Source: a virus
IMG/VR virus record: IMGVR_UViG_3300046171_000314
Location: 62,001-126,000 of that record
Reading direction: 5' to 3' (one strand)
Length of the DNA: 64,000 nt
Shown piece by piece: positions 13,706-34,172 of this stretch. The notes beneath the pieces were generated by a model. The model ran no database searches, was not told where the DNA came from, and worked only from the letters and a program-made list of their open reading frames with translations. Within the stretch, counting starts at the first letter, position 1. Every line of letters starts with the position of its first letter. Position numbers and translations under genes: made by a program.

Positions 13706-13861
13706 ATGAAAGATATTATTGTTTGGGTGGCTTGCAGAGCCACAACTAAGTGTGAGGGTCAGCGAGCCAAGCAGGTACGACACATTAAAACAGAAGGTGG
13801 TGGTCACATCACCCATTACAGATGCTTAACTTGCAATAAAAAGTTTGTGGTGCGAGTATGA
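13706..13861 (+). CDS. small zinc-finger-like protein
   Basis: 51 residues. Cysteines in VACRATTKCEG and YRCLTCNKKF form two pairs as in a small zinc ribbon. The tail is basic. Its stop overlaps the start of the delta prime gene (ATGA), so it is coupled to the clamp-loader genes. The function is unknown; nucleic acid binding is likely from the zinc-ribbon pattern. Confidence 0.65.
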   Translation: MKDIIVWVACRATTKCEGQRAKQVRHIKTEGGGHITHYRCLTCNKKFVVRV

Positions 13862-14457
13862 CCGCACGACTTATTTATGGCAGTGGTGCTTACGATAAAG
13901 CCCTTGAAATCGCACATTCCTTGACCAAAAGAGTATACGACTTTGGTGGGGATAGTCTTTCGACAGAACAAGCCAAAGCAGCCACAGAGAAGATGATCTA
14001 TGCTCCCATAGGCTCAGACCTATGTTGTGTTGTTGTAGGTGCTGTGGATAATGCTAGGGGGTCTGCAACCGATGCTCTCTTGAAAAGCATAGAGGAACAC
14101 CCTGAGTTCATTTTACCCATCTTGTGGGCGAATGGGCTAGACCGTGTGCCCTCTACGATTCGTTCAAGGTGTTCCGCAGAGTGGACAAAAGATACAGACT
14201 TTGCTGATGACTTGTCTGAGTACCACAAATTGGTAGAGGCTTGTTTGGTGTCCGATTATCATATTGCTTTGATGTTGGGCACAGATATAATCTCCGAAAG
14301 TTCTGCGAAAGGATTGTTGATTGGTTTTTCTAAGGTGCTTTCCACGAAGTCTTTTGATAACCCTAAGGTATCTATTTTATGGCAAAGGGTTCGTGAGGCG
14401 TTGATGCAGAATTACCCTCTATCAAAGACAGAGGCATTGGGGGTTATATGTATCTAG
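13858..14457 (+). CDS. clamp loader delta prime-like subunit
   Basis: 199 residues. The segment ARGSATDALLKSIEEHPEF, followed by ILPILWANGLDRVPSTIRSRC, matches the AAA+ core of bacterial delta prime (HolB), including the SRC sensor motif. No Walker A is seen, as expected for an inactive AAA+ stator subunit. It is shorter than HolB (about 330), so the C-terminal collar may be reduced. It overlaps the delta-like gene by 10 bases, so the two are made together. It would place the sliding clamp on DNA with the delta and DnaX-like proteins encoded here. Confidence 0.75.
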   Translation: MTARLIYGSGAYDKALEIAHSLTKRVYDFGGDSLSTEQAKAATEKMIYAPIGSDLCCVVVGAVDNARGSATDALLKSIEEHPEFILPILWANGLDRVPSTIRSRCSAEWTKDTDFADDLSEYHKLVEACLVSDYHIALMLGTDIISESSAKGLLIGFSKVLSTKSFDNPKVSILWQRVREALMQNYPLSKTEALGVICI

Positions 14458-15407
14458 TTTATGGTGGTCACGAGTTCCTTTGTCGGAGGTCTATTAACGA
14501 CATTCGGAAGGCTATGACAGCAAAGGGTTTCTCGGTACACACTGTTTCCTCTGAAAACCTTGAAGAAGAGGCACAACCAATGTTGTCTCCTGTTTTATCT
14601 TTTATGGGGGGTTCTACTGAAAAGAGTGCCTTTGTAGTGGATGAGGGAGTGGAAGACCTTGACTTGGAGTATGCGTCTTCTCTCGAAAAGGATTTTGGAA
14701 TTCCAATTGTCTTATACTTGAATGGGTCTTTGCCAAGATCAAAAAAACATCCCTTACATTCTTTCATTAAAAAAATACCAAAGAAATGTGTCATTAAACA
14801 TCTTGTGCCAAGCACCTTCAAAGAACATGAGGTCGCTATCACCTTTGTCTTAGGGGAAGCCTCTCGATTAGAGAAAGAACTTAATTCTCAATTGGCAGAA
14901 GGAATTGTTAAAATTTCAGGAACAGATCTCGGTATTCTTTCTTTTGAAATCCTTAAAGCGAGTTATCTTGCTCACGATTCAAAGGAGTTGAAACCTGAAC
15001 ATTTTCGAACCATTTCTTCATTAGCCGAAACCTCTGCTCTTCCTCTTATCCAATCTATTTCAACAAAAAACTTGAAAGAAGTGTTGAAACAGTTTGGGAA
15101 GATGAGAACCACCTATCATCGAGATCCTACTTTGATGGTGTGTGGTTGGCTAGGGTCAGAGGTCTGTAAGTGGCTTACAACCGCTTCTGCTTTGAAGAAA
15201 GGATCAGTAAAACCAAGCGACCTAAATATTCATCCATATGTTTTTCAAAAAAATATCTTGCCTGCGGCAAAAAAATGGGGAGAAAATTCTCTGTTGAAAT
15301 TGCTACATATTATCTCAAATGTTGAAAGGTATGTAAAAACAGGCGGCAAGCACGCTCTTGATAGATTAGAGGTTGAACTTGTATTTCTGATCAAAGAGAA
15401 TCCTTAG
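14448..15407 (+). CDS. clamp loader delta-like subunit (HolA-like)
   Basis: 319 residues, close to the usual length of delta. It starts MYLVYGGHEFLCRRSINDIR, like the YLLYGEDxFL opening of HolA. It also has VLYLNGSLPRSKKHPL and a helical C-terminal collar with RTTYHRDPTLMVCGWLGSE and LLKLLHIISNVERYVKTGG. Delta is the clamp-opening wrench of the bacterial DNA polymerase III loader. Identity is supported both by the sequence pattern and by coupling to the delta prime-like gene. Confidence 0.75.
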   Translation: MYLVYGGHEFLCRRSINDIRKAMTAKGFSVHTVSSENLEEEAQPMLSPVLSFMGGSTEKSAFVVDEGVEDLDLEYASSLEKDFGIPIVLYLNGSLPRSKKHPLHSFIKKIPKKCVIKHLVPSTFKEHEVAITFVLGEASRLEKELNSQLAEGIVKISGTDLGILSFEILKASYLAHDSKELKPEHFRTISSLAETSALPLIQSISTKNLKEVLKQFGKMRTTYHRDPTLMVCGWLGSEVCKWLTTASALKKGSVKPSDLNIHPYVFQKNILPAAKKWGENSLLKLLHIISNVERYVKTGGKHALDRLEVELVFLIKENP

Positions 15408-15502
15408 TTAGGTTTTCGTTTCTCTTTTGATAAACATTACTATGATACCGCCATCTTCTAAAGGGCGAATCTCAAACCATCTAAAAAACTTGGAGTACAA
15501 CA

Positions 15503-17440
15503 ATGAACAGCCCCTTAAAAACCATATACTTCCCCAACTTATTGTCTGAGTTTGTGTACACTCGAACCTATTCTCGTTGGAATGGTGAAAGACGAGAGAC
15601 TTGGCAAGAGTCCGTGTCTCGATACATCTCTTTCCTCAGAAAGGAAAGACCACAAGTTCCCCCTGAAGTTTTTCAAAAAGCAGAACAATTGATTTTGAAT
15701 ATGGAAGTGATGGGTTCTATGCGAGCCTTGTGGTCGGCAGGAAACCCTGCAAAGAGAGATAACACTTGTATATACAATTGCTCATTCATTCCTTTGGACA
15801 ATCTCAGAGCCTTTTCAGAGGGTCTTTATATTCTTATGCAAGGGACAGGTGTGGGTTTTTCTGTTGAGCGTCAGTTTGTTAATAATCTTCCTGTGGTTTC
15901 AAAGAAAGATCTTCATAAAATCCTCACACACAAAATTGTCGATAGTGCTGAGGGATGGGCAGAGGCATTGTTCACCGCTTTATATGAAGGATTCACAGGT
16001 GGGTTTGTAAATTTCGACTACTCAGATGTCAGACCTGCGGGAGCAGTTCTCAAAACAAAGGGTGGGAGAGCAAGTGGTCCTGAGCCTTTGAAGAACCTTC
16101 TTGATTATGTTGCTGTTGTGTTGGCGAATGCAGCAGGGAGAAAGTTAACCTCCTTGGAATGTCACGACATTATGTGTATGGTGGGTGAAATAGTTGTTAG
16201 TGGGGGTGTCCGAAGATCGGCTCTTATTTCTTTTTCTGATCCTGACGATGAGGAAATGAGAAACGCAAAGAATTGGAAATTGGGAGAGTTTCCCAAGCAT
16301 AGGTATATGGCGAATAACTCCGCTTACTATGATGAGAAGCCAAGCGAAGATGTGTTTTGGGCAGAATGGGAAGCCCTTGTAGATTCGCAAAGTGGTGAGA
16401 GAGGGTTTTCTATTGGAAATTGGCACACTCGTGCTGATCGACCTTCTTCTGATGTTCGGTCAAACCCTTGTCACGAAATAGGCTTACGGTTTCTTAGGGC
16501 GACTAATCCAATAACAGGTGAAGGTGGTGGCGGTCAGTTTTGTAATCTAAGTGCTGCTATTATGCGTTCGGAAGATACAGAGGATTCTTTTGCTGAGAAG
16601 ATTCAAATAGCCACTTGGATTGGGGCTATTCAAAGTTCTTTCACACACTTTCCGTATCTTAGAAAGGGTTGGGTTCAAACCTGTCAAGAAGATCGCTTAT
16701 TGGGTGTGGATATAACAGGACAATGTGATAACCCTGCATTATCTCAAAATGAGATATTTATGAAGAAGATGAATGATCTCGCCATTAGCACATCCATCAA
16801 AGCAGCGGATTGCTTAGGGATTAACCACCCTGCTGCTGTTACTTGTGGTAAGCCGAGTGGCAATACCTCTCAACTTGTAGATTGTGCAAGTGGTTTTCAT
16901 CCTCGACACAGCAAGTTCTATTACAGACATGTTCGTATTGCAGGACACGACCCTCTTTGTCAGATGATCCGAGATCAAGGCGTTCCGATGTTCAAAGAGA
17001 ATGGAGAAGAAGGGCTAGCCGACAAAGACGTTTCTACTTGGGTTGCTCGTTTCCCTGTCAAAGCCCCTGATGGTGCAATGCTTCGAGACTCTGAAACAGC
17101 CCTTGAGATGTGTGAGAGATACTTACAGATTATGCGGACTTGGTGCTCTGACAAAGGACACAACCAAAGTGTGACTATTTATGTTCGAGAGGGAGAGTGG
17201 AAGACAGTAGGTCAATGGGTTTATGATCACTTCGATGAGATTACAGGACTTTCTTTCTTGCCTTATTTTGGAGGTAACTATCGTCTTGCCCCTTACGAAG
17301 AAATTGATGAAGCAACCTATGAGCAAGCAATGAGCGAAATGCCTATGATAGATTTCTCTCATCTTTCCCACTATGAGAAAGAAGATCGAGGAGAGGGTGC
17401 TCGTGAACTTGCTTGCGTTGGTGGTTCTTGCGAGTTGTAG
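15503..17440 (+). CDS. nrdJ: class II (B12-dependent) ribonucleotide reductase
   Basis: 645 residues, close to the monomeric adenosylcobalamin-dependent ribonucleoside triphosphate reductase of lactobacilli. Key points: NTCIYNCSF near residue 95, the active-site block SNPCHEIGL (thiyl-radical Cys and catalytic Glu, near 320), GGGQFCNLSA, TCGKPSGNTS, and the C-terminal redox pair CVGGSC. It makes dNTPs from NTPs without oxygen dependence but needs cobalamin and a thioredoxin-type reductant. No separate radical-generating subunit is needed or seen. It supplies nucleotides for the replication genes on both sides. Confidence 0.95.
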   Translation: MNSPLKTIYFPNLLSEFVYTRTYSRWNGERRETWQESVSRYISFLRKERPQVPPEVFQKAEQLILNMEVMGSMRALWSAGNPAKRDNTCIYNCSFIPLDNLRAFSEGLYILMQGTGVGFSVERQFVNNLPVVSKKDLHKILTHKIVDSAEGWAEALFTALYEGFTGGFVNFDYSDVRPAGAVLKTKGGRASGPEPLKNLLDYVAVVLANAAGRKLTSLECHDIMCMVGEIVVSGGVRRSALISFSDPDDEEMRNAKNWKLGEFPKHRYMANNSAYYDEKPSEDVFWAEWEALVDSQSGERGFSIGNWHTRADRPSSDVRSNPCHEIGLRFLRATNPITGEGGGGQFCNLSAAIMRSEDTEDSFAEKIQIATWIGAIQSSFTHFPYLRKGWVQTCQEDRLLGVDITGQCDNPALSQNEIFMKKMNDLAISTSIKAADCLGINHPAAVTCGKPSGNTSQLVDCASGFHPRHSKFYYRHVRIAGHDPLCQMIRDQGVPMFKENGEEGLADKDVSTWVARFPVKAPDGAMLRDSETALEMCERYLQIMRTWCSDKGHNQSVTIYVREGEWKTVGQWVYDHFDEITGLSFLPYFGGNYRLAPYEEIDEATYEQAMSEMPMIDFSHLSHYEKEDRGEGARELACVGGSCEL

Positions 17441-17510
17441 TTTTTCAATAGTTTATTTATATCCTGTGGGTGTTTGACATCCTTGCAGGATATATTTTTT
17501 GAGGTTTGCT

Positions 17511-18122
17511 ATGAATAGAAGCGTTTACTCCGATTGGGACGACTTTACTGTGGGAGATGATTATGTTTATTGTGAAGAGGACTTTAAGACCTTTCAATAT
17601 CTTGTCGACAAGTTAGAGAAACAAACAAAGAAAGGCATCGATGCTCTTTTACAAAAACACGGTTTCGGAAATCTGACAGTAGACTTTTTTGACATAGAAG
17701 AAACCGAAATGGATGAAGATGGTTACGATATTCATGCCGTAATGTTTTTCAATGGTAAAGGAATCTCTACCTCAAAACTGCAAGAGATTACTTTCACTCT
17801 CACAGGCGATGTGTCCCTCAACACAGAAGAATATGAGTATATGGGCACAGTTCAATCTTGGATGGAATCCCCTCCATATGAGGTTGGCTACATTGAGGTT
17901 ATCTGCCCTGATCGGAAGATAAGTTCCTTTGAGATTATTAAGGGAAAACGTGCAAGTTCTAGTTTTTCGGCTAATGCCTTTATTAAGGCAATTGATGAAT
18001 ACTTAAATAATTTTAGCAAATCGAGAAGAGCCTCAGATTTGGCAAGAGTCCGAAAAAAGAGAGCACATCAAATCTCCAAGAGAAGAAAGCGTTCTAGTGG
18101 GTGCAATTGTCGTAAAAAATAA
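17511..18122 (+). CDS. hypothetical protein with basic Cys tail
   Basis: 203 residues from the ATG at 17511 (SD GAGG). The N-terminal two thirds are acidic and look like a mixed alpha-beta domain. The C-terminal 40 residues are extremely basic (KSRRASDLARVRKKRAHQIS, then KRRKRSSG) and end with CNCRKK. A basic tail of this kind suggests nucleic acid binding or packaging with DNA. No family is recognised. A terminator follows. Confidence 0.65.
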   Translation: MNRSVYSDWDDFTVGDDYVYCEEDFKTFQYLVDKLEKQTKKGIDALLQKHGFGNLTVDFFDIEETEMDEDGYDIHAVMFFNGKGISTSKLQEITFTLTGDVSLNTEEYEYMGTVQSWMESPPYEVGYIEVICPDRKISSFEIIKGKRASSSFSANAFIKAIDEYLNNFSKSRRASDLARVRKKRAHQISKRRKRSSGCNCRKK

Positions 18123-18150
18123 ACCTTGTGTTATAATTCTCCTTTGTTTT

Positions 18151-18182
18151 CCCCTCCAACATTATGTTGGGGGGGTTTTTTT
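18151..18182 (+). terminator. rho-independent terminator
   Basis: Stem CCCCTCCAACA/TGTTGGGGGGG with a TTA loop, followed by seven T residues. It closes the transcript that carries the ribonucleotide reductase gene. Confidence 0.88.
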
Positions 18183-18206
18183 ATTTGCAAACAAATGGGG
18201 GTGTTG

Positions 18207-18218
18207 CTTCGGTATAAA
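18207..18218 (+). promoter_or_regulatory. CGGTATA promoter box
   Basis: CTTCGGTATAAA lies 23 bases before the helicase ATG and directly after a strong terminator, so a promoter is required here. Confidence 0.6.
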
Positions 18219-18241
18219 CCATTCAAACAATAGGAGATAGA

Positions 18242-20599: not shown

Positions 20600-20615
20600 G
20601 AACACAGAGGATATT

Positions 20616-20915
20616 ATGAGAACTTTAGAAGAAATACAAAAAGGACTATTGGTGGGACAGGTAACCGCCACTAGAACTCTTAGGAGTAAGTCAGGAGACA
20701 TCATCACTTCAATCATTGGTGAGTGGGGCAGTGATACAAACAAACTCAGTTTGAAAGAGGTACAGGTCGCCTACCTATTGGTTTCTCGTGAAGCCGATAT
20801 AGGGGCTTTACGGTCACAATATGCCAAAGGGCTAGTAGATGCCATTGAATTTGAAACACAATTGCAGAGTATGAAATATCGGTATGAAGAACAGATAAAG
20901 GAGATATCAAAATGA
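20616..20915 (+). CDS. small helical protein
   Basis: 99 residues starting MRTLEEIQKGLLVGQ; the ATG at 20616 follows an AGAGGA SD. The middle (DIITSIIGEWGSDTNKLS) and tail (LQSMKYRYEEQIKEISK) look helical. It overlaps the next gene by 4 bases (ATGA). It could be a partner of the recombination proteins that follow, but nothing identifies it. A CGGTATA sequence lies in the last codons of the helicase gene just upstream. Confidence 0.65.
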   Translation: MRTLEEIQKGLLVGQVTATRTLRSKSGDIITSIIGEWGSDTNKLSLKEVQVAYLLVSREADIGALRSQYAKGLVDAIEFETQLQSMKYRYEEQIKEISK

Positions 20916-21574: not shown

Positions 21575-21704
21575 TTTTTTTCACCAACAACGATCAATTA
21601 TAGATCGGAACTTGGTATAACTACTCGGCACTAACATTTTGTGCCTTTCTATAAACCTCGCACTAACAAAATAACAAATGTGCATTTTACATAAGGAGAT
21701 TCCT
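21575..21704 (+). promoter_or_regulatory. 130-base leader with repeats and promoter box
   Basis: This leader of the probable ssDNA-binding protein gene contains a hairpin GGCAC/GTGCC (about 21627-21645), a CTTTCTATAAACC box (21645-21657) and two direct copies of GCACTAACA about 32 bases apart. The SD is AAGGAG. T4 gene 32 is known to repress its own translation through its leader; a similar control is possible here but not shown. Confidence 0.45.
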
Positions 21705-25633: not shown

Positions 25634-25645
25634 TATCTTTTGTTG

Positions 25646-25658: not shown

Positions 25659-25672
25659 ATCGGAGGTTATTT

Positions 25673-26641
25673 ATGAAACTTATATGGCGAACAGACATAC
25701 ACCTTTCTGACAAGACACCTGTGAGCAGGAAGGACAATTGGAAAGAAACAATATTTAAGAAGATTCAGCAGGTCGGAAAGATCGCAGAAAAACACGATGC
25801 AGTTGCTGTTCTAGATGGGGGTGACTTCTTCGATATCAAGTCGCCTTCACGGAACTCACACGAACTTGTTAGGGAAGTTCTCGATGTTCATAAGGAATAC
25901 CCTTGCCCTGTCTATGCGAATGTGGGCAACCACGATTGTGTATATGGTGATTATCAATTCTTGCCACAACAACCTCTTGGGGTTCTGTTCTCAAGTGGGT
26001 GTTTTCAAAGGCTCTATGACGAGCACGAGGTCACCTTTGAAAAAGATGGTGTCAAGGTTCGGGTTGTGGGCGTTCCCTATCACGGTGTTGAATATGATAT
26101 GGAAAGATTCAAAAGCATAAAGAAGGGGGACGAGGATTGGCTTGTCTGTATTGCCCACGTTCTTGCTTCTGAGAAAGGCGGTACAATGTTTGAGGGGGAG
26201 GATATCGTCAAGTATAGCGACTTGACCGATCTAGACCCTGATGTATTTTGTTTTGGGCATTGGCACAAGAATCAAGGGATTAAGAGTATCTCTCACACAA
26301 GACAACAATGGGTTGTGAACATAGGTTCTCTTTCAAGGGGTAGTCTCACACAGGACAACTTAGACCGAGTGCCTTGTGTGGCATTAATGGAATTCAATAA
26401 AGAGGGCATACATCTCATAGAGATACCTCTTGAGATAGAAGATGCTGAGGAGGTCTTTGACATTGAAAAACGATTACAAGAGCAGGTTCGTGAGGACACA
26501 ATGAATCAACTTGTTTCGAGCATACAAACGAAGTTAGAGTCTACACAAGGACTAGACCTTCGGTCTGCTGTCAAGGCATTAGATCTCCCTGATACAGTGA
26601 AGGAACGAGCCATCTCATATATAGAAAAAGTAGACCGATAA
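25673..26641 (+). CDS. Mre11/SbcD-like nuclease
   Basis: 322 residues. The five metallophosphoesterase motifs are in order: WRTDIHLSD, VLDGGDFFD, ANVGNHDCVYG, CIAHVLAS and FGHWHKNQG. The helical C-terminus (about 270-322) could be the Rad50-binding region. With the two Rad50-like halves it would form an SbcCD-type complex that cuts hairpins and blocked DNA ends. T4 gp46/gp47 is the known phage counterpart, used in recombination-dependent replication. Confidence 0.9.
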   Translation: MKLIWRTDIHLSDKTPVSRKDNWKETIFKKIQQVGKIAEKHDAVAVLDGGDFFDIKSPSRNSHELVREVLDVHKEYPCPVYANVGNHDCVYGDYQFLPQQPLGVLFSSGCFQRLYDEHEVTFEKDGVKVRVVGVPYHGVEYDMERFKSIKKGDEDWLVCIAHVLASEKGGTMFEGEDIVKYSDLTDLDPDVFCFGHWHKNQGIKSISHTRQQWVVNIGSLSRGSLTQDNLDRVPCVALMEFNKEGIHLIEIPLEIEDAEEVFDIEKRLQEQVREDTMNQLVSSIQTKLESTQGLDLRSAVKALDLPDTVKERAISYIEKVDR

Positions 26642-26643
26642 TC

Positions 26644-26656
26644 TCCCTATATTTTC
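26644..26656 (+). promoter_or_regulatory. CTATATTTTC late-type promoter box
   Basis: TCCCTATATTTTC lies 32 bases before the ATG of the first RLAHTNPELR protein. It is an isolated late-type box inside the replication block. Confidence 0.5.
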
Positions 26657-26687
26657 ATCTTCTTATGAACCATAGGAGAAATTTATT

Positions 26688-27032: not shown

Positions 27033-27046
27033 GACTTGGGGAAAAA

Positions 27047-27397
27047 ATGTCAGACTTACGCAGTAAAATTATCCGTTTGGCTCACGCAAACCCTGAACTC
27101 CGCAAAGACTTGCTTCCCTTGTTGAAAGAGGCTGTTCCGATGGTATCGAACTATGACATAAATGGATACTTCAATAGCCCACAGGAATACCTTGATGCGG
27201 AAGAGGTTCTTTTCAAGAAGAGACTTATTATGGACAACACCAATTGGAATGACAGTGGATCGCAAACGGGTTCTTTTCTGTATGCGGTTTCCCCAAAGAA
27301 TGTTCGTAAGGTCGAACAGATTATTAAGAAAATGGGTGGCACGATTACAAGTAAGGTTGCTCGTGGCGAAGATGGACAAGAGATAGTAGCAAGATAG
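27047..27397 (+). CDS. RLAHxNPELR-tagged protein B
   Basis: 116 residues. It starts with the same tag (KIIRLAHANPELRKDLLPLL, then KEAV), followed by an unrelated small domain (NSPQEYLDAEEVLFKKRLI, KVEQIIKKMGGTITSK). The first 90 bases of this gene and its left neighbour are closely similar in DNA as well, pointing to a tandem duplication of the tag. A terminator follows, so the pair forms its own transcript. Confidence 0.7.
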   Translation: MSDLRSKIIRLAHANPELRKDLLPLLKEAVPMVSNYDINGYFNSPQEYLDAEEVLFKKRLIMDNTNWNDSGSQTGSFLYAVSPKNVRKVEQIIKKMGGTITSKVARGEDGQEIVAR

Positions 27398-27421
27398 TAG
27401 ATACACTCTTTCATCCTAATC

Positions 27422-27448
27422 AAGAACCCCTCTTGGGGTTCTTTTACT
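27422..27448 (+). terminator. rho-independent terminator
   Basis: Stem AAGAACCCC/GGGGTTCTT with a TCTT loop, followed by TTACTTTT. It ends the tagged-protein pair. Confidence 0.8.
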
Positions 27449-27487
27449 TTTCTTGGGTATCATTGTTTCACAGACACAGGTGAAATA

Positions 27488-28420
27488 ATGGCAAGAAAAT
27501 TTAATGTGATGTATTGGTCTACCTTTGACCTATATGAAAATTGTCCTCAGAGGTTTCTTTGGCAAAGAGGTTGGAAAGGAATTGATCTTGGGTATGGAGT
27601 TGGCGAACCTATTCCTTCACCAAAGAAGGACAGTATGCACCACGCAGTTATGGGGATAGTCCTCGCAAAAGCGATGGAGGACTTATACAATGATCAACTT
27701 TATCTTGACCCTCCAACTCTTCGTGAGAAGTTAGAGGACATTGTTGAAAAGGAACTTCGCTATCAGATAACAAGAAAGCACATAGATTGGAATCAGACCT
27801 CTCACGAGGAAATGTTGAAGATTTGTTTGGATGGTATTCGTGGGTACTTGACCACAATGAAGCACAACAAACTTTTGGGGCAGTATGCAAGAAGCGAGGT
27901 CGACTTGGTTGCTGAATTGAAAGAGGGGCATCTCATTGGTGGTCGTGCAGACCTTATTATTAAGAGAGGTTCAGAGGTTGGCGTATATGATGGGAAGAAC
28001 TCTAAGAGTAAAGGAAAATATACAAGCCCTGATCAGTTGCGTTGGTACGGTCTTTTGTACAAGGCTTGTGAAGGTGTTCTTCCTGATAAGTTGGGTTTTG
28101 TTTATTTCAGATATCCTTTTGGAACTCCAAAGGAAGATGGGGGCATTGAGCAGGGGGTTGAATATGTCGATTGCAATGAGGTCGACCTGCAAACTCTTAG
28201 CGAACGTGCTATTCAAGCAAGGGATAACATAATGGCACAGAAATTTGATGCCAACCCACAACCCAAATATTGTATGTGGTGCGAATATAATGAGATGTGT
28301 GAACCAAGACAGGAGCAGAGGAAAGCCAACTCTAAGAAAAGGAAAAAGTCTTTGGGTTTGGAATTGGACACAAAGGGAGAGGTATTTTTTGAATTTTCTT
28401 TGCCTCGCACGATCAAATAA
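27488..28420 (+). CDS. Cas4/RecB-like PD-(D/E)XK nuclease with Fe-S cluster
   Basis: 310 residues. STFDLYENCPQRFLWQR gives the first cluster cysteine (about 19). A distal CMWCEYNEMC (about 261-270) supplies the other three, as in Cas4 and AddB. The catalytic core is GGRADLIIKRGSEVGVYDGK with the PD-(D/E)XK acid and lysine, followed by QLRWYGLLY. It is likely a 5'-3' exonuclease for DNA end processing. The basic tail KKRKKS is extra. Phages commonly carry such enzymes beside replication genes; no CRISPR array is present here. Confidence 0.85.
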   Translation: MARKFNVMYWSTFDLYENCPQRFLWQRGWKGIDLGYGVGEPIPSPKKDSMHHAVMGIVLAKAMEDLYNDQLYLDPPTLREKLEDIVEKELRYQITRKHIDWNQTSHEEMLKICLDGIRGYLTTMKHNKLLGQYARSEVDLVAELKEGHLIGGRADLIIKRGSEVGVYDGKNSKSKGKYTSPDQLRWYGLLYKACEGVLPDKLGFVYFRYPFGTPKEDGGIEQGVEYVDCNEVDLQTLSERAIQARDNIMAQKFDANPQPKYCMWCEYNEMCEPRQEQRKANSKKRKKSLGLELDTKGEVFFEFSLPRTIK

Positions 28421-28459
28421 AGATTCTGATTCTGTATAGGACAGAAGGAGGGTTCTAAT

Positions 28460-28723
28460 ATGACAACCGAACGATTAAAACAGGCTCTTGATAAGAGAGA
28501 CAAGTTGAATACAACCTTACAACGATTGAAAGGTCGATTAGAAAAGTCTCAACAGGATAGGGATAGTATTATCTCAGAGATTAGAGATAAAAATCTAGAT
28601 CCCGAAAACCTAGATCAAACTATTTCTGTACTACAAGAAAAATACACAAATCTTCTTCAGAAGTTTGAAGAAGACCTGAACACCTTACAAAACAATCTCA
28701 CTCAATATATGGAGAAAAAATAA
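28460..28723 (+). CDS. small coiled-coil protein
   Basis: 87 residues, nearly all heptad-like helix (LQRLKGRLEKSQQDRDSI) broken by NLDPENLDQTI, which would make a helical hairpin. The short turn in the middle is typical of proteins that sit beside SMC or Rad50 genes. It is only two bases from the probable sliding clamp gene. It may bridge the split Rad50 halves, but no direct evidence exists. Confidence 0.6.
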   Translation: MTTERLKQALDKRDKLNTTLQRLKGRLEKSQQDRDSIISEIRDKNLDPENLDQTISVLQEKYTNLLQKFEEDLNTLQNNLTQYMEKK

Positions 28724-28725
28724 AA

Positions 28726-29880
28726 ATGAAACTTACGATAGCAAAAAATGACCTAATGTCTTCTTTATCCTTAACCTCTCACGCATTGGGCAAGGACACT
28801 TGGACTACCCATTATTTTGTCAGAAAGCACAACGATAGTAAAGTAGAGGTTCTTTCTACAAACCATCGATATTGCTCATCGGCACTTGCTCCTTGTCACT
28901 TGGATGGGGAACTTGGAGAATTCACACTCGAAGGAAGTCGAGTAAAGACTTGGTTGAAAAATGTGTCAGATGGCGTAGCCCTTGTATTGGATAGTGATGG
29001 AAAAGTTGTTAATGCAAAGTCGGCTCGTGGCTCTGTTCGTTGGAACTGTGCAGGCACAGGGGACTTCCCCTATTGGGATGATGCTTTGAAGAAAGCAACC
29101 ACACAATGCACAATAGATGCCAATGAGTTCTTTGAGATGCTTTCGCACGCAAAGAACTTTGTGGGCAAGCCTGATGCAAAGAGTTTAGCCTTTCGTTATA
29201 TTCGTGTTGAGAAAGGTGCGGTATTTGCAAGTAATGGTCTTTCTCTCAGCATTATATTTTGCGATAAATTGAAGAAAGCCAATTTCTGTTTCAATGCCAA
29301 CGATGCCTCCCCTCTCTTGGGATTTTTGAGCAAACTTGAGGGCGATGTCGAGATCTTGTCCACTGACAGGATCGTCTTTTTCAAGGGATCAAATGAGGCA
29401 GTATTTGGGCTGACGTTGCCTTCTAAGCGTTCGATTGCAGGACTTGGAACACTTGCTCCTGATAAGTACCAAGCCACCTTGAATAGTAGTGTAGGCTCTT
29501 GGGAAGCCACAACTAAAGACCTTCAACAAACCATAGGGTTGTTAGAGTCATCTATGAATAGCGATGATCAAGTCATTAAGGTTTCTTTTGTCAATGATGA
29601 AGATGGGGAGAAAGCCTTGTCTTTGTCTGCTGTTTCGGTCACAGGAGATGTCGACAGTTTGAATGTGGGATTGTCTTCTTATGTTGATGAAGAGGGGATC
29701 GTAGAGAAGGGGCAATACCTCAACAAAGAGATAATGTTGAAGGTATTACAAATCATTGACTCACCGACAACTACGATTTCGGTATTAAAGTTGCTCAGTA
29801 ACTCGGCTTGTTTGGAGCACGAAGTTCTTGGGTACACCTCATACTCAGTGGTCGTTCCTTTGCCCAATAAGACTTTTTAA
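28726..29880 (+). CDS. probable DNA polymerase sliding clamp (beta-like)
   Basis: 384 residues, the usual length of a bacterial beta clamp (about 370). It begins MKLTIAKNDLMSSLSLTSHA, like the first helix and strand of DnaN. A second repeat begins near TIDANEFFEMLSHAKNFVG and a third near KYQATLNSSVGSWEATTKDL. It ends VVVPLPNKTF, similar to the C-terminal strand PMRL of beta. The sequence is divergent, so the call leans on length, three-part layout and the presence of delta, delta prime and DnaX-like genes. The last base of its stop is the first base of the next ATG. Confidence 0.65.
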   Translation: MKLTIAKNDLMSSLSLTSHALGKDTWTTHYFVRKHNDSKVEVLSTNHRYCSSALAPCHLDGELGEFTLEGSRVKTWLKNVSDGVALVLDSDGKVVNAKSARGSVRWNCAGTGDFPYWDDALKKATTQCTIDANEFFEMLSHAKNFVGKPDAKSLAFRYIRVEKGAVFASNGLSLSIIFCDKLKKANFCFNANDASPLLGFLSKLEGDVEILSTDRIVFFKGSNEAVFGLTLPSKRSIAGLGTLAPDKYQATLNSSVGSWEATTKDLQQTIGLLESSMNSDDQVIKVSFVNDEDGEKALSLSAVSVTGDVDSLNVGLSSYVDEEGIVEKGQYLNKEIMLKVLQIIDSPTTTISVLKLLSNSACLEHEVLGYTSYSVVVPLPNKTF

Positions 29881-30521
29881 TGTTTGAACAAGTAAAACAA
29901 GATTATGCAAAATTGCTTGGTCGGAAAGAAGCCCTACAAGAGCGGATTCTTACGACCAAGCAGAACATTACAACACTATCAAATGAAATAGAAACTCTTG
30001 ATAGTGTTGGGGTGGTCTTTCGTCAGTTGCTTGATGATGAGGTAGCCTCCTCTGTGAAAGCAGTGGAGGAACTTTTGTCAGAAGCCCTACAAGCCGTTTT
30101 CACCGATCAAAGTCTTCGTGTTCGTGCTAACATTTCTGTCCTTAGGGGCAAGGTTTCCGTAGAACTTTTGACTATTCAAGATCACGGTGGAGGGGTAATT
30201 ATTGAGGGACAGAGTTCTGAGGGTTTTGGTGGGGCTGTTACTACAGTTCAATCTATCATTCTGCGTATTCTTGTTTGCTTGAAGCGAGGTATGAGACCCT
30301 TTCTCCTTTTAGACGAGTCCTTGCCTGCCTTTGACTCTAATTATGTTCATAATATGGGGAATTTCCTATCTTCCTTATGTGGGAGGTTGGGTATAGATAT
30401 TCTTCTAGTCACACACAATCAGCATCTTGTTGAGGCTAGTGACAAAGCCTTTATCATTGATAAAAAGAAAGGGAAAGCAACCTTTTCAAAAGTTGTGAAG
30501 GGTTCTGTGTCAAAGACATAA
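29880..30521 (+). CDS. Rad50/SbcC C-terminal half
   Basis: 213 residues. A short N-terminal coiled coil (about 1-45) leads into the C-terminal ABC lobe: signature-like SSEGFGGAVTTVQ (about 112-124), Walker B RPFLLLDESLPAFD and the switch region ILLVTHNQHL. No P-loop and no zinc hook are present. These are exactly the parts missing from the 24453-25523 protein, so the two are best read as one ATPase encoded in two genes 4.4 kb apart. The antiparallel coil arm is much shorter here than in its partner. Confidence 0.85.
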   Translation: MFEQVKQDYAKLLGRKEALQERILTTKQNITTLSNEIETLDSVGVVFRQLLDDEVASSVKAVEELLSEALQAVFTDQSLRVRANISVLRGKVSVELLTIQDHGGGVIIEGQSSEGFGGAVTTVQSIILRILVCLKRGMRPFLLLDESLPAFDSNYVHNMGNFLSSLCGRLGIDILLVTHNQHLVEASDKAFIIDKKKGKATFSKVVKGSVSKT

Positions 30522-30530
30522 GAGGGAAAA

Positions 30531-30935
30531 ATGGCGTTGTTGGGAAAAGTGGTTCAGAAATTTAAGCAGGTTCGATTTAGATACTTGAAGAAGTTTTTAA
30601 ATGATCATCTTAATAAAGAATCCAAGAACTGTGTGTACAATCGATCAACAACCTTTTCACAAGGAGGCTGCGATAATGTCGGCTTGTGTGCTTTTGGTTT
30701 TGAGGAGAAGGCTTGGCTAGGGGGTGCTTGTGATTCAAGGGTAAACCCTGAACTTGCGAAAGGGTGCGAGGACTTTCTTTCGTTGTATAAGAAAGAGGAC
30801 TTAAAGAAGGTGTTCAATGATTTCTTGGAGACATCGACTTTGGCAGATATCACAAAACACTATCCTGACCTTGCTACTCTTATGTGGGTGATGGAACAGG
30901 CGAACATAGATATAGAAGACTCAGAGGAGGAATAG
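30531..30935 (+). CDS. Cys-containing hypothetical protein
   Basis: 134 residues. Four cysteines in NCVYNRSTTFSQGGCDNVGLC and GGACDSRVNPELAKGCEDF look like a metal site. The N-terminus is basic and the tail acidic. Phage proteins with this Cys layout are often found beside primase and Rad50 genes, but no function is known. A 9-base gap and a weak SD connect it to the Rad50 C-half gene. Confidence 0.6.
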   Translation: MALLGKVVQKFKQVRFRYLKKFLNDHLNKESKNCVYNRSTTFSQGGCDNVGLCAFGFEEKAWLGGACDSRVNPELAKGCEDFLSLYKKEDLKKVFNDFLETSTLADITKHYPDLATLMWVMEQANIDIEDSEEE

Positions 30936-31472
30936 GTGTCGCATTTATTAAAGTTAGTGAAGTTTGATAAAGTAAAGCCTTCTATTCAGCCCCTTGCGTT
31001 TGAGTTTCAGGCTAACAAGGAGGCTACTCCTTTTTTGGTTTCGACAAGCAAATCTTTGTTGTGGATAACAGAAGCCCCAACAAATGTTGTTCGAGCAGCA
31101 GTTAGACCCAAAACAAAGATACAAGATTTTTATCTTGAGGTTATTCAAGAAGTAGTGGAGGTGGGGGAAGAGTGTTCTTGGGGAAATAATTACTCTTTTA
31201 ATAAAGAGGGGGTGTTGTCTGCTGTTTCCTATGTAAAATCTTATGGCATTGAGGAGGTGGTTTGTCTATTAAGTTCCTCTACAAAAAGCAGAACTAATTT
31301 TTTGCAGGGAACAGGGGTGGAGTTTTCTATTTGTAATTGGTTGCCGCAAGACTTTATTGCTGTCGTCCCCAAAGACAGATCTCTATTAGGGTTCGTTGGT
31401 GTGATGAACTCAGGGTTTGTTTCGGTAATACAAAATCCAAGCAGGTGTTTGGCTTTTGCAGGTGCTATATGA
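30936..31472 (+). CDS. hypothetical protein
   Basis: 178 residues, GTG start just after a GAGGAGG SD. It is a beta-rich mixed sequence without recognisable motifs (LLWITEAPTNVVRAAVRPKT, LLGFVGVMNSGFVSVIQNPS). The stop overlaps the ATG of the primase gene (ATGA), so its product is made along with the primase and may be an accessory subunit. It does not resemble a zinc-binding primase domain. Confidence 0.6.
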   Translation: MSHLLKLVKFDKVKPSIQPLAFEFQANKEATPFLVSTSKSLLWITEAPTNVVRAAVRPKTKIQDFYLEVIQEVVEVGEECSWGNNYSFNKEGVLSAVSYVKSYGIEEVVCLLSSSTKSRTNFLQGTGVEFSICNWLPQDFIAVVPKDRSLLGFVGVMNSGFVSVIQNPSRCLAFAGAI

Positions 31473-32191
31473 GAGAATGGCTTGAAAATTCATTGTACGA
31501 CTTAACGGAAGATCAGGAGACGTATCTCTTAGGTCGAGGAGTTCTCAGAGAGGAGATTCGTAATGTGAACTTTCAATCTTGGTGTCCTGAGAAGCCTTGT
31601 CCTGCAAAAACCACAGAAGGGCAAGACTTTGTTAAGAGATTTGGGGAGTACGGTCATCGTCTTAATGATCTTCTATTGACTCCTTTGTACTCTCCTTCTA
31701 GCAAGTTGGTTGGTGTTGAAGGTCGTTCCATAGATGGCAACAAAACAATAATGAGAGTCCTTTCCTTTGAGTCTAAGTGGTGTCCGATATGGATAGGGCT
31801 TGGCAAAGCAGAGATGCTCAGGATTTGGAATGGGTATGATGTGTGGATAGTAGAAGGGATCTTCGATCTTACAACTCTGAGAGCCATAATGCCTCACGTA
31901 GTTGTTCTAGGGTCTTTGAGAGCCAACCTCACCAAGAAACATTTAGAGTTCCTTAGTCGCTTTGTGAAGGGCACAATTTACGTTGCTTACGACAACGATG
32001 AGACAGGACAAAAGGCTATGTACGGTCACTTCGATCCTAATGGTCGAAGACAACAAGGTATCATAGAAAAAATTAACAAATTACGATTAAACGCAGTGCC
32101 TGTTCGGTATAAGGGTGGCAAAGACCCGAATGAGATATGGCAACAAGGTGGCTACGATCAAGTTCGTAAATCTTTCATTAACTACCTATAA
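31469..32191 (+). CDS. DnaG-type primase with TOPRIM domain
   Basis: 240 residues from the ATG at 31469. The TOPRIM core is clear: VWIVEGIFDLTTLRAI (catalytic Glu), VVVLGSLRANLTKKHL and IYVAYDNDETGQKA (DxD), ending with RYKGGKDPNEIWQQGG. The N-terminal part (about 1-100) has WCPEKPCPAKT and LLLTPLYSPSSKLVGVEGRS, as in the DnaG catalytic N-terminal subdomain. A full CHC2 zinc-binding domain is not present, so template recognition may rely on a partner. No replicative helicase is visible in this window. Confidence 0.85.
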   Translation: MREWLENSLYDLTEDQETYLLGRGVLREEIRNVNFQSWCPEKPCPAKTTEGQDFVKRFGEYGHRLNDLLLTPLYSPSSKLVGVEGRSIDGNKTIMRVLSFESKWCPIWIGLGKAEMLRIWNGYDVWIVEGIFDLTTLRAIMPHVVVLGSLRANLTKKHLEFLSRFVKGTIYVAYDNDETGQKAMYGHFDPNGRRQQGIIEKINKLRLNAVPVRYKGGKDPNEIWQQGGYDQVRKSFINYL

Positions 32192-32206
32192 TATAAGGAG
32201 CATAAT

Positions 32207-32677
32207 ATGCCTACTGAAATATGGAAAGCAACAGAGGACATACAGGATTCTGTTAAAAAACTTGTTGCGAATCATCACCCTGACCTAATACTTGCCGCTG
32301 ACGAGATTGTGGTTCTCTTTCGTGAGAAAGCCACAAAGAAAGGTGGGAAAGTCATCTTAGGATCAAGCAAGAAAGCCCCCTCGATATTGAATGTTCTATC
32401 TGATGTTGAGTGTAAGTTTATTATCGAACTTGCGGCAGACGAATGGGTGGGTCTTACATCAAACCAACAAACCGCTTTGTTGGATCACCACTTGTGTGCG
32501 TTTCAAGTAGAAGAAGACCCCAAGACAGGAGATGTGAAATACTTTATCGCTCCTCCTGACATCGGATACTATCTTGATGAATATGAGCGGTATGGGGATT
32601 GGAGACCAAAGCAAGAAGAGGACACCACTGTGAAAGTGGATACAGTAACAGCAGACACCATCTTAGATGGACAGTAA
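32207..32677 (+). CDS. putative phage metallopeptidase-like protein
   Basis: 156 residues. LVANHHPDLILAADEIVVLF, then KFIIELAADEWVGLTSNQQTA and LLDHHLCAF, match the PhageMetallopep type (PF18894), where LLDHEL.H holds the metal-binding residues. Here the Glu of that motif is His (DHHL), so catalytic activity is doubtful. The C-terminus has PPDIGYYLDEYERYGDW. A terminator follows. The role in phages is not established. Confidence 0.65.
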   Translation: MPTEIWKATEDIQDSVKKLVANHHPDLILAADEIVVLFREKATKKGGKVILGSSKKAPSILNVLSDVECKFIIELAADEWVGLTSNQQTALLDHHLCAFQVEEDPKTGDVKYFIAPPDIGYYLDEYERYGDWRPKQEEDTTVKVDTVTADTILDGQ

Positions 32678-32698
32678 GCAGTTTTAATTGGCTTTATT

Positions 32699-32727
32699 AA
32701 AGGTGGGCTATTGCTCACCTTTTTTTG
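32699..32727 (+). terminator. rho-independent terminator
   Basis: Stem AAAGGTGGGC/GCTCACCTTT with a short loop, followed by seven or more T residues. It closes the nuclease to primase transcript. Confidence 0.82.
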
Positions 32728-32755
32728 TTTATGGGGTGGTTGGAACGTAAGAGCA

Positions 32756-32767
32756 CTTCGGTATATT
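32756..32767 (+). promoter_or_regulatory. CGGTATA promoter box
   Basis: CTTCGGTATATT lies 22 bases before the DnaX-like ATG and just after a terminator. Upstream, GGAACGTAAG resembles the ACGTAA element of the 6.5-6.8 kb promoters. Confidence 0.58.
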
Positions 32768-32789
32768 CAAAAACAGATAGGAGAATACA

Positions 32790-34172
32790 ATGGCATTTGA
32801 TACAAAATATCGTCCTAATGGATATGACTCGGTTATTGGGCAAGAAGCCAATGTAAAGGTTCTACAGAGCATCGTGAAGAATGGATCAGGCTTTCACCAA
32901 TCTTATGTATTTTGTGGGCAGCACGGTACAGGAAAAACCACATTGGGTCGGATTCTTGCACGAGCCTTGCTTTGCGAAAATCCTCAGGAGGGTAATCCTT
33001 GCGATCAGTGCTCTTCTTGTTTGTCTATTTTGGAGAATGGTAGTTCGGAGGGGTTCATAGAAATAGATGCGGCTACAAACTCAGGCAAGGGAGACATTAA
33101 AGAGATAGTGGATCAATTAGAATACGCTACTGTGACAGGAAAGAAAAGGATTTATCTATTTGATGAGGCACATGAGTTATCAAGACAAGCCCTTGATGGT
33201 TTATTGAAGCCGATGGAAGATACAGAGGTGGGATCTGACGATAAAAAGTTGGTGTGCATCTTTTGTACAACCGAGCCTGAGAAGATGCGAAAGACCATCT
33301 TCTCAAGGTGTGCCCCTGCTTTTGTTATTCGTGTTCCAACCCCTCAGGATATAGCAGACAGACTTGTATATGTCTGTGAGAAGGAGGAAATAGAATATGA
33401 CTATGAAGCCCTTGTATCTATTTCGGAGTACTGTTCCTGCCACGTTCGAGATTCTCTTAAGTCTTTACAAGGTGTCTCTTCTTTGGGCAAGGTCGATATG
33501 GCAGCCATTAAGCAATACCTGCGATTAGATGTACAGATAAAATGTTTAGAGGTTCTTGATAACTTAAGATCCGATTTTGCAAAGGCAATCGAGAACTTCG
33601 ATGCTTTAAGGATTATTGCTTCTCCTGCCTCTTGTTACGAGCAACTATCCAAGTTGTCCTTGATGGCATATAGAAAATCATTGGGGGTTTCAAAGATCCC
33701 CGTTTATTTGGATTCCAAAAAGATAGACTCAATCTCTAAACAAGGGCAGCAACTTATAGTTCTCACCCAAAGTTTGCTTTCACATCCACATAATCCCTCT
33801 CACGAAATGCTACTATGTGATCTGTCTAATTATCATTTTGGACAAGCCCCTATACAGACTATAACTAAAGTAGTCACCCAAACTTTAGAACCAAAAACAC
33901 AACCAACACAAAAAAATTCTCAACAGATACCACAAAGTTCGGTATCGTACCAACAACAAAAGCCTACAATTATAAATGGGGTATATCGAGAAGCAAGGGC
34001 GGTTAAGAAACCTCCTAGAAAATCAGAGAGTGTTCCGAAAAAAGAAGGAATACCTTTTGAAGTTTTTAAGGATTTCCTAGACGCTCGCTATCAGGAGTTG
34101 GAACACGAACATGGACAAAAGAGACGAACAAACTTGGGTGGTTTTGGAACTTTCTCACGCAGGAGAGTCTAG
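32790..34172 (+). CDS. dnaX: clamp loader gamma/tau-like subunit (DnaX-like)
   Basis: 460 residues. KYRPNGYDSVIGQE, Walker A GQHGTGKT (43-50), a zinc-binding block with Cys in LLCENP and CDQCSSC, EIDAATNSGKGDIKEI, Walker B YLFDEAHELS, LLKPMED, FCTTEPEKM and FSRC are all as in bacterial DnaX domains I and II. A collar domain (about 225-350) follows, then a Gln/Pro-rich linker and a basic tail. It is the ATP-hydrolysing motor of the clamp loader. A possible -1 frameshift site lies in the linker (33910-33946). The 3' end overlaps the NusG-like gene by 62 bases. Confidence 0.95.
   Translation: MAFDTKYRPNGYDSVIGQEANVKVLQSIVKNGSGFHQSYVFCGQHGTGKTTLGRILARALLCENPQEGNPCDQCSSCLSILENGSSEGFIEIDAATNSGKGDIKEIVDQLEYATVTGKKRIYLFDEAHELSRQALDGLLKPMEDTEVGSDDKKLVCIFCTTEPEKMRKTIFSRCAPAFVIRVPTPQDIADRLVYVCEKEEIEYDYEALVSISEYCSCHVRDSLKSLQGVSSLGKVDMAAIKQYLRLDVQIKCLEVLDNLRSDFAKAIENFDALRIIASPASCYEQLSKLSLMAYRKSLGVSKIPVYLDSKKIDSISKQGQQLIVLTQSLLSHPHNPSHEMLLCDLSNYHFGQAPIQTITKVVTQTLEPKTQPTQKNSQQIPQSSVSYQQQKPTIINGVYREARAVKKPPRKSESVPKKEGIPFEVFKDFLDARYQELEHEHGQKRRTNLGGFGTFSRRRV
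33910..33946 (+). promoter_or_regulatory. possible -1 frameshift signal in dnaX-like gene
   Basis: A run of seven A residues reads A AAA AAT in the zero frame, followed after 8 bases by a perfect stem GATACC/GGTATC with a 9-base loop. A -1 shift would add about 30 codons and stop at 34004-34006. This copies the layout of the known E. coli dnaX site (slippery A-rich heptamer plus downstream hairpin). The stem also contains TTCGGTAT, so it could instead be a promoter-like box for the NusG-like gene. Confidence 0.4.

What the first reader, a model, noticed from the sequence alone, without database searches (positions are those of the whole stretch)
13858..34172. A phage-encoded bacterial-type clamp and clamp loader
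Delta prime-like (13858-14457), delta-like (14448-15407), a probable beta-like clamp (28726-29880) and DnaX-like (32790-34172) proteins are all present. DnaX is clear by motif; the two delta calls rest on the AAA+ segments, the SRC motif and gene coupling; the clamp rests on length and layout. Well-studied phages mostly use a T4-type clamp system or none, so a near-complete polymerase III-style set is unusual. It suggests that a polymerase III-like or host replicase is recruited.
Basis: partly seen in the sequence, partly recalled or inferred. Interest (0 to 1): 0.75.

Follow-up and report, generated by a model that had tools for sequence, protein, structure and literature searches.

The report
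Phage's own bacterial-type sliding-clamp set
This large bacterial virus carries its own version of the ring that bacteria use to hold their DNA-copying enzyme on DNA, plus all three kinds of protein needed to load the ring, and its longer-sequenced relatives pair this set with a different type of DNA polymerase from the one bacteria use.

Summary
The four gene calls hold up. 28726-29880 is a three-domain beta-type sliding clamp: its AlphaFold2 model (mean pLDDT 93.6) matches bacterial clamps at Z about 32 over about 350 residues. 32790-34172 is DnaX. 14448-15407 is delta: a clade profile hits the solved chain 3zh9_B ('DELTA') at 1.5e-29 over positions 6-318 of 319. 13858-14457 is a short delta prime (199 aa) that seems to lack the lid domain. 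So the window holds all four gene types of a minimal bacterial-type clamp and loader. The further reading, that Pol III or a host replicase is recruited, is not supported: in 32 related IMG/VR records, clamp and DnaX are in 32, delta in 28, Pol III alpha in 0 and a family A polymerase match in 19, including all 18 records of 226 kb or more. The window's own 148-kb linear record has no detectable polymerase, most likely because it is a fragment. Phage clamps and phage loader subunits are known separately; one Nodularia phage has Pol A, DnaX and clamp, but no delta by my profiles. Delta was found in one genuine held phage record, a relative. dnaX is followed by NusG-like and sigma-like genes across the clade. 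New variant of a known kind.

The parts
13858..14457 (+). Delta prime (HolB-type) clamp-loader subunit, 199 aa, short form: degenerate P-loop, SRC motif, apparently no lid domain
   Evidence: PF13177 1.5e-10; 21 of 21 members of alignment A9 match PF13177; AF2 model pLDDT 93.2, pTM 0.63; VIA Z 14.6 to 2gno, Z 12.0 to E. coli delta prime 1a5t, 196 residues aligned over 24..318
14448..15407 (+). Delta (HolA-type) clamp-loader subunit, 319 aa, overlaps the delta prime gene by 10 bp
   Evidence: Clade profile A8 hits 3zh9_B 1.5e-29 over 6-318; PF21694 in 14 of 25 members; a delta prime ORF next upstream in 27 of 28 delta loci
28726..29880 (+). Beta-type sliding clamp (DnaN fold), 384 aa
   Evidence: AF2 pLDDT 93.6, pTM 0.90; Foldseek best 6ams_D 7.6e-24; VIA Z 32.7 over 352 residues, 2pol Z 31.7; clade profile to PDB clamps 4.5e-18
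32790..34172 (+). DnaX-type clamp-loader ATPase, 460 aa: Walker A, DExH, SRC, four zinc-module cysteines, collar region, C-terminal tail
   Evidence: PF13177 1.6e-26; invariant G48 K49 T50, C62 C71 C74 C77, D125 E126 H128, R173 C174 over 30 clade members
34111..34647 (+). NusG-like protein, start overlaps the end of dnaX
   Evidence: PF02357 0.01, below cut-off; PHROG 6386 transcription antiterminator 1.9e-4; a homologue follows dnaX in 33 of 33 loci with over 1.5 kb of room, the window included
34647..35252 (+). Sigma-like protein (region 4 detected)
   Evidence: PF04545 2.8e-10; PHROG 351 2.1e-14; a homologue follows in 32 of 33 loci with room, the window included
31337..32191 (+). Toprim primase-like protein between clamp and dnaX (true start may be later)
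   Evidence: PF13155 3.8e-10; PHROG 47 DNA primase 1.6e-16
29880..30521 (+). SMC/SbcC-like ATPase fragment, overlaps the clamp stop codon; syntenic in LR745208.1
   Evidence: PHROG 15167 ATPase 3.6e-21; 52% to LR745208.1
18242..20599 (+). RecD2-type helicase, replication/recombination block
   Evidence: PF13604, PF14490 and PF18335 over cut-off; syntenic in LR745208.1
23175..24392 (+). RecA/UvsX-type recombinase, same block
   Evidence: PF00154 6.2e-52; PHROG 97 1.8e-62
25673..26641 (+). SbcD-like nuclease subunit, the gene used to find the clade
   Evidence: PHROG 100 2.5e-9; 100 IMG/VR relatives confirmed by tblastn, 80 kept
27488..28420 (+). PD-(D/E)XK nuclease just upstream of the clamp
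   Evidence: PF12705 5.8e-19

Best explanation
The window lies in a fragment of a large tailed-phage genome whose lineage encodes a complete minimal sliding-clamp system of the bacterial kind. DnaX (the ATPase), delta (the clamp opener) and delta prime (the stator) would form a DnaX-DnaX-DnaX-delta-delta prime type pentamer that opens the phage's own beta-type ring at primer ends and leaves it on DNA. Shown here: the identity and fold or profile family of the four proteins, and their conserved gene order and co-occurrence in a clade of large phages. Inferred: that the loader acts on the phage clamp, that the pentamer has the bacterial stoichiometry, and that the ring tethers the clade's own family A polymerase, not Pol III; the polymerase gene would lie on the missing part of this genome. 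The short delta prime would keep the arginine-finger (SRC) and collar contacts but dispense with the lid, which is tolerable because it should not bind ATP (inference from its degenerate P-loop).
For: Clamp fold and profile. Delta profile and PF21694 in 14 of 25. Delta prime PF13177 in 21 of 21, fold. DnaX motifs. In a 32-record panel chosen from 80 related loci mostly for record length: clamp 32 of 32, DnaX 32 of 32, delta 28 of 32, Pol III alpha 0 of 32 over cut-off, Pol A match 19 of 32, namely 18 of 18 records of 226 kb or more (one of them, G028, by a single short piece) and 1 of 14 shorter ones. A delta prime ORF is the next homologue upstream of delta on the same strand, at most 371 nt away, in 27 of 28 delta loci; in the 28th (LR745208.1) another ORF, methyltransferase-like by eye, lies between them. 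Fragment argument: G000 69-136 kb is largely colinear with G001 207-273 kb, and the Pol A locus of G001 (94.7 kb) has no counterpart in G000; two panel records carry an identical 20,951-bp stretch, yet the 297-kb one has Pol A and the 150-kb one does not.
Against: No polymerase was found in the window's own 147,878-bp record: PF07733, PF00476 and PF00136 none, and tblastn of 19 query proteins from Pol A regions none below E 0.11. No clamp-binding pentapeptide was found in 18 clade Pol A proteins (0 of 18 for two patterns); a looser hexapeptide pattern was found in 12 of 18 against a shuffle mean of 6.3, reached by 0 of 200 shuffles, but in the 16 of these without long insertions 12 of 14 sites fall in two aligned columns that look like ordinary polymerase sequence. 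So a physical link of Pol A to the clamp is not shown. Alone, the window clamp and delta miss Pfam cut-offs. G029 of the panel had no delta match and one sub-threshold Pol III alpha match (0.006). Delta prime pTM is only 0.63, and the lid claim rests on alignments whose second piece is weak.
Confidence: 0.72

Rival explanations
1. The phage clamp and loader serve the host replicase: the phage lacks its own polymerase, and its ring and loader capture host Pol III for phage DNA.
For: No polymerase family was found in the 147,878-bp record. The loader set is of the bacterial kind. Most panel records under 200 kb also lack a Pol A match (13 of 14). No clamp-binding pentapeptide was found in the clade's Pol A.
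Against: All 18 panel records of 226 kb or more carry a Pol A match, and a 150-kb record that shares an identical 20,951-bp stretch with a Pol A-bearing 297-kb record lacks it, so absence in a fragment says little. The clamp is only 10-17% identical to the bacterial clamps listed in the structural alignment, which makes recognition by a host polymerase less likely (inference).
Confidence: 0.15
2. The clamp set serves mainly repair, recombination or transcription coupling, with replication processivity secondary.
For: The genes sit in a block with RecD2, RecA/UvsX, RuvC-like and SbcCD-like genes; dnaX is followed by a NusG-like gene in 33 of 33 and a sigma-like gene in 32 of 33 loci with room.
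Against: A primase-like gene also lies in the block and the longer records of the clade encode a DNA polymerase; clamp loaders in well-studied systems serve replication first (established knowledge).
Confidence: 0.1
3. The window is bacterial or plasmid DNA, not phage, and the genes are ordinary host genes.
For: The genes are of bacterial type.
Against: Terminase and portal genes in the window; the record is an IMG/VR virus record; relatives are IMG/VR virus records and one uncultured phage record; a scan of genome contigs with the SbcD-like alignment gave 1 locus, a 3,659-bp contig of a metagenome-assembled genome.
Confidence: 0.02

Closest known systems
Bacterial DNA polymerase III clamp and clamp loader (DnaN, DnaX, HolA, HolB)
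   Same: Same four protein types by fold or profile; DnaX with P-loop, zinc module and SRC; delta prime with SRC.
   Different: 10-17% identity for the clamp in the structural alignment; delta prime about 200 aa instead of 334, apparently lidless; no Pol III alpha over cut-off in the clade panel.
LR745208.1, uncultured 485-kb phage, apparently the same phage as panel record G015 (485,040 bp)
   Same: Has all four proteins and a syntenic block from delta to the gene after the clamp.
   Different: Identity to the window proteins: clamp 24%, delta 25%, delta prime 30%, DnaX 48%. DnaX, helicase and Pol A carry long in-frame insertions that look like inteins. Pol A present, Pol III alpha and Pol B not found.
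Nodularia phage vB_NspS-kac65v151 (146.6 kb)
   Same: Encodes Pol A, DnaX and a clamp annotated as processivity factor; my clamp and DnaX profiles hit the last two.
   Different: No delta (best E 0.35) and no separate delta prime (the only hit is DnaX itself) among ORFs of 80 aa or more of the whole record, filters off.
Aquificae viruses (Thermocrinis Octopus Spring virus group), PMC7689252 (passages read)
   Same: PolA-type polymerase together with a Pol III-type sliding clamp.
   Different: The paper says they lack an obvious clamp loader.
Jumbo phage subgroup 3.1 of PMC7824862 (passages read)
   Same: T7-like (family A) polymerase, some with an RFC-like clamp loader.
   Different: The paper reports no detectable PCNA-like clamp there, and the words DnaN and DnaX do not occur in its main text.
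T4 gp45/gp44/gp62
   Same: Phage-encoded ring and loader; the delta prime model also aligns with the T4 loader subunit (3u61_C, Z 13.3).
   Different: The window clamp is a three-domain protein of the beta type, and the loader has separate DnaX, delta and delta prime genes.

Membership tests
Bacterial-type beta sliding clamp | Three-domain processivity fold over the whole chain | tested here: met
   VIA Z 32.7 (3t0p_B, 352 aligned, rmsd 3.1), 2pol Z 31.7 over 353; Foldseek best 7.6e-24
Bacterial-type beta sliding clamp | Sequence homology to DnaN | tested here: met
   42-sequence profile to PDB beta clamps, best 4.5e-18; E. coli DnaN 30.9 bits
Bacterial-type beta sliding clamp | Pfam DNA_pol3_beta domains over curated cut-off in the window protein itself | tested here: not met
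   None for P0003; PF00712 in 3 and PF02768 in 1 of 42 clade members at E <= 0.01. A library threshold, not a biological criterion: the protein is too diverged
Bacterial-type beta sliding clamp | Homodimeric ring around DNA | not testable with these tools
   No complex prediction available
Pol III-type clamp loader, DnaX | Walker A, DExH, SRC, zinc module | tested here: met
   Invariant or near-invariant over 30 members; PF13177 over cut-off
Pol III-type clamp loader, delta | Full-length homology to solved bacterial delta | tested here: met
   3zh9_B 1.5e-29 over 6-318; PF21694 in 14 of 25 members. E. coli HolA itself: 5.2e-8 with filters off, missed with default filters
Pol III-type clamp loader, delta | Clamp-opening hydrophobic motif in domain I (as E. 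coli MSLF, recalled) | tested here: inconclusive
   Several clade members read SGLFD, SSLFD or similar at the aligned place, the window protein VLSFMGG, others do not fit; judged by eye
Pol III-type clamp loader, delta prime | SRC arginine-finger motif and AAA+ core | tested here: met
   S103 R104 invariant over 21, the C in 16 of 21 by eye; PF13177 21 of 21
Pol III-type clamp loader, delta prime | Core, lid and collar domains (about 330 aa) | tested here: inconclusive
   199 aa; model is a core joined directly to a helical bundle; alignments skip about residues 193-245 of gamma and 172-211 of E. coli delta prime, the second piece weak in both. Three outlier relatives have 315-356 aa ORFs
Pol III holoenzyme | C-family alpha polymerase encoded with the clamp set | tested here: not met
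   PF07733: 0 of 1 own record, 0 of 1 LR745208.1, 0 of 32 panel records over cut-off, one sub-threshold 0.006 in G029
T4-type clamp system | Two-domain clamp subunit of the gp45 type | tested here: not met
   Window clamp is 384 aa and aligns end to end with three-domain beta clamps

The most novel reading that the evidence does not exclude
In these large phages a beta-type ring, loaded by a phage DnaX-delta-delta prime complex with a lidless delta prime, works with a family A polymerase and also links replication to late transcription: the dnaX gene is followed, clade-wide, by a NusG-like and a sigma-like gene, so that the ring or its loader may recruit or activate a phage-modified RNA polymerase, as T4 gp45 does with gp55 and gp33. 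This would be an independent invention of clamp-coupled transcription.
Probability: 0.2. Interest if true: 0.78.

Novelty: new variant of a known kind. Interest (0 to 1): 0.56.

Why it matters
Phages with family A polymerases are best known from T7, where processivity comes from host thioredoxin (established knowledge). A clade of large phages that pairs a family A polymerase with a complete bacterial-type clamp loader, including the rarely seen delta, would show that the Pol III clamp machinery can be uncoupled from Pol III and reused. It gives a small system (four genes plus one polymerase) in which loader function, the need for the delta prime lid, and a possible clamp link to transcription can be tested directly.

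Tried and rejected
Single-sequence searches failed for the clamp and delta: phmmer of P0003 found nothing in the PDB and P0002 only chance hits; related-loci scans with P0003 and P0004 alone found no relative. They were replaced by alignment-based searches.

A clamp-binding motif in Pol A was sought and not found: strict and loose pentapeptides 0 of 18; the hexapeptide excess sits mainly in two aligned columns and was rejected as a clamp signal.

A programmed frameshift in dnaX as in E. coli was considered: one AAAAAAG run at 34038 is in codon phase 0 and one A7 run lies at 33910. The first is not in the E. coli register (recalled); no claim is made.

A phage delta outside this clade was sought with E. 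coli HolA: 3 records. All look bacterial: two contigs of 'Acinetobacter phage MD-2021a' whose sister contigs carry dnaX and dnaN, and the unverified record 'Pseudomonas phage Y3', where ORFs similar to leuS, lptE and holA follow each other as in E. coli. tblastn with three queries (P0002, L113, HolA) can miss diverged deltas.

Limits. Pol B was tested only in G000 and LR745208.1, not in the panel. The panel is 32 of the 80 loci, chosen mostly for record length; 48 loci were not given. It holds one pair of records with an identical stretch (G006/G007) and G015, which appears to be LR745208.1 again. G028 counts as a Pol A match on one 43-position piece only. In one search the 33 loci include near-duplicates, the window and LR745208.1. 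Alignment A7 left out 13 of the 55 clamp hits (cut off, or near-duplicates of others); A8 holds 25 delta proteins and leaves out L100, L105, L114, L117, L124 of the 28 loci; A9 and A10 together hold 24 of 29 delta prime proteins (left out: those of L109, L110, L114, L117, L124).

Not-in-print check: searches listed no paper that I recognise as describing a phage with clamp, DnaX, delta and delta prime; I read passages only of PMC7162821, PMC7824862, PMC7689252, PMC13282480 and PMC11448039, and of the other papers only the listing with the start of the abstract. The library lacks most subscription papers.
Full report
Where it is. The window is bases 62001-126000 of a 147,878-bp linear IMG/VR virus record. 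It carries terminase and portal genes, so it is phage DNA. ARAGORN finds no tRNA gene in the window.

The four proteins. All four ORFs are open at the given coordinates. DnaX (32790-34172) is plain by Pfam (PF13177 1.6e-26) and keeps, over 30 clade members, the P-loop, four zinc-module cysteines (C62, C71, C74, C77), D125-E126 and R173-C174. Delta prime (13858-14457) passes the PF13177 cut-off alone (1.5e-10); all 21 members of its alignment match PF13177 at E <= 0.01. Its P-loop region reads GSGAYDKA and lacks GK[ST], so it should not bind ATP (sequence, inference). Delta (14448-15407) is sub-threshold alone, but its 25-member profile hits the solved delta chain 3zh9_B at 1.5e-29 over positions 6-318 and the Pol III delta chain 8vam_A at 5e-8; 14 of 25 members match PF21694 at E <= 0.01. 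The clamp (28726-29880) has no clamp match in Pfam or PDB when searched alone, but it matches PHROG 947 (1.5e-11), its 42-member profile hits many PDB beta clamps (best 4.5e-18), and its AlphaFold2 model (pLDDT 93.6, pTM 0.90) aligns with bacterial clamps end to end: Z 32.7 over 352 residues for 3t0p_B and 31.7 over 353 residues for E. coli 2pol, at 10-17% identity in the rows listed; Foldseek agrees (6ams_D 7.6e-24). This is far beyond chance.

The short delta prime. The model (pLDDT 93.2, pTM 0.63) shows a core with five strands joined directly to a bundle of five helices. It aligns over 1-199 with clamp-loader subunits whose matched range is about 275-295 residues (2gno 25..299, Z 14.6; 1a5t 24..318, Z 12.0). 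Profile alignments skip about residues 193-245 of gamma and 172-211 of E. coli delta prime, roughly where the lid lies (recalled); the piece after the gap is weak in both. In 24 of the 27 delta loci with a neighbouring delta prime ORF it is 192-261 aa, in 3 outliers 315-356 aa. A lidless delta prime is thus likely but not proven.

The clade. The closest held phage record is LR745208.1 (485 kb, uncultured), which has DnaX (48% identity), clamp (24%), delta (25%) and delta prime (30%), with the same gene order from delta to the gene after the clamp. The SbcD-like alignment then led to 100 IMG/VR relatives, 80 kept. In those 80 loci plus L008, L012 and the window, 55 ORFs match the clamp profile and 54 the DnaX profile; where both are in one locus on one strand, dnaX starts 2.4-5.5 kb after the clamp, in 41 of 41. 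In 32 records searched whole: clamp 32, DnaX 32, delta 28. Of the four without delta, three have the block close to a contig end by the ranges (G013, G014, G027); G029 has no explanation. A delta prime ORF is the next homologue upstream of delta, at most 371 nt away, in 27 of 28 delta loci.

Which polymerase. Pol III alpha: none in the own record, LR745208.1 or, over cut-off, in 32 panel records (one sub-threshold match, 0.006, in G029), while 10 of the 14 control genomes ring in that call. Pol A: 19 of 32, i.e. 18 of 18 records of 226 kb or more and 1 of 14 shorter ones; in G028 only one short piece matches. Own record: no Pol A, Pol B or Pol III match; 19 proteins from Pol A regions give nothing below E 0.11 against it, while against the Pol A locus of G001 18 of the 19 (one of them that protein itself) give E of 1.6e-60 or better (the 19th, from the G028 region, gives no hit and is probably not a Pol A). 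The own record is best explained as a fragment: its 69-136 kb part is largely colinear with 207-273 kb of the closest relative G001 (289 kb; clamp 37.5% identical), its left part matches mostly 154-202 kb of G001 in shuffled order, and the Pol A locus of G001, at 94.7 kb, has no counterpart (G001 before 92.5 kb and 98-100 kb was not compared). A direct example: two records share an identical 20,951-bp stretch; the 297-kb one has Pol A, the 150-kb one does not. Of 18 Pol A proteins, 18 have an HDE-type motif and 16 an exonuclease-type [LIVFY]D.ET motif, most with a long C-terminal tail. No clamp-binding pentapeptide was found in them, so the link from ring to Pol A is inferred from co-occurrence.

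Rarity. E. coli DnaN finds 313 of 50,697 phage records, some clearly bacterial contamination, and P0004 finds 218. [quoted passage not shown] PMC11448039), and the huge-phage paper used a clamp loader gene as a marker (PMC7162821); so loader subunits as such are ordinary. Clade clamps find only LR745208.1 or nothing, clade deltas only LR745208.1. E. coli HolA finds 3 records that look bacterial. The short delta prime P0001 finds LR745208.1 and two weak partial matches; the long form of L127 finds 86 records, 2 of them over 80% of its length, but DnaX proteins answer to it too. A Nodularia phage has Pol A, DnaX and clamp but no delta or separate delta prime by my profiles with filters off. In print, Aquificae viruses pair PolA with a Pol III-type clamp but no obvious loader (PMC7689252, passages), and jumbo subgroup 3.1 pairs a T7-like polymerase with an RFC-like loader but no PCNA-like clamp (PMC7824862, passages). 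My searches (listed under Tried and rejected) gave no description of the full set.

A linked transcription pair. The end of dnaX overlaps a NusG-like gene (weak: PF02357 0.01; PHROG 1.9e-4), followed by a sigma-like gene (PF04545 2.8e-10). Among loci with more than 1.5 kb after dnaX, a homologue of the NusG-like gene follows in 33 of 33 and of the sigma-like gene in 32 of 33, near-duplicates, the window and LR745208.1 included. In an outlier group the NusG-like stretch lies in a protein of about 600 aa. T4 uses its ring gp45 with gp55 and gp33 in late transcription (PMC7892883, start of abstract). Whether this clade does something similar is open; it is my most novel reading.

Verdict. It is a new variant of a known kind: a full bacterial-type clamp set in large phages whose longer-sequenced relatives encode a family A polymerase.

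Noticed in passing
window 34111-35252 and clade loci: NusG-like and sigma-like genes follow dnaX clade-wide; many of the sigma-like proteins share a C-terminal stretch like NLNILREVQR.
   Followed up: partly
window 9349-10675: A PIN-PhoH gene is split over two overlapping ORFs; in the relative G001 one ORF covers both. Frameshift, real or by assembly.
   Followed up: no
window 436-1786 (minus) and 50256-53502: Two further pairs of adjacent ORFs each match a single ORF in G001.
   Followed up: no
LR745208.1, L012:10817-12703, L008:5413-8202, L013:2691-7967: Long in-frame insertions, intein-like, in DnaX, the RecD2 helicase and (several) in Pol A of the same phage.
   Followed up: no
L002:992-2233 and 2372-3646 (own record): Neighbouring AAA_5 ATPase and VWA-domain genes, like a MoxR-VWA pair.
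   Followed up: no
L004:11143-12210 (own record): Protein with DUF3293 and a borderline S-adenosylmethionine lyase match just over its cut-off, a possible anti-restriction gene.
   Followed up: no
phages collection, H50-H53 and H90-H92: Records labelled phage that carry bacterial DNA: DnaN 96-100% identical to E. coli, and a leuS-lptE-holA row in the unverified record Pseudomonas phage Y3.
   Followed up: partly
L156, RFZO01000200.1: A clade-like SbcD gene (56%) sits on a 3.7-kb contig of an Actinomycetota metagenome-assembled genome: a weak host hint or a binning error.
   Followed up: no
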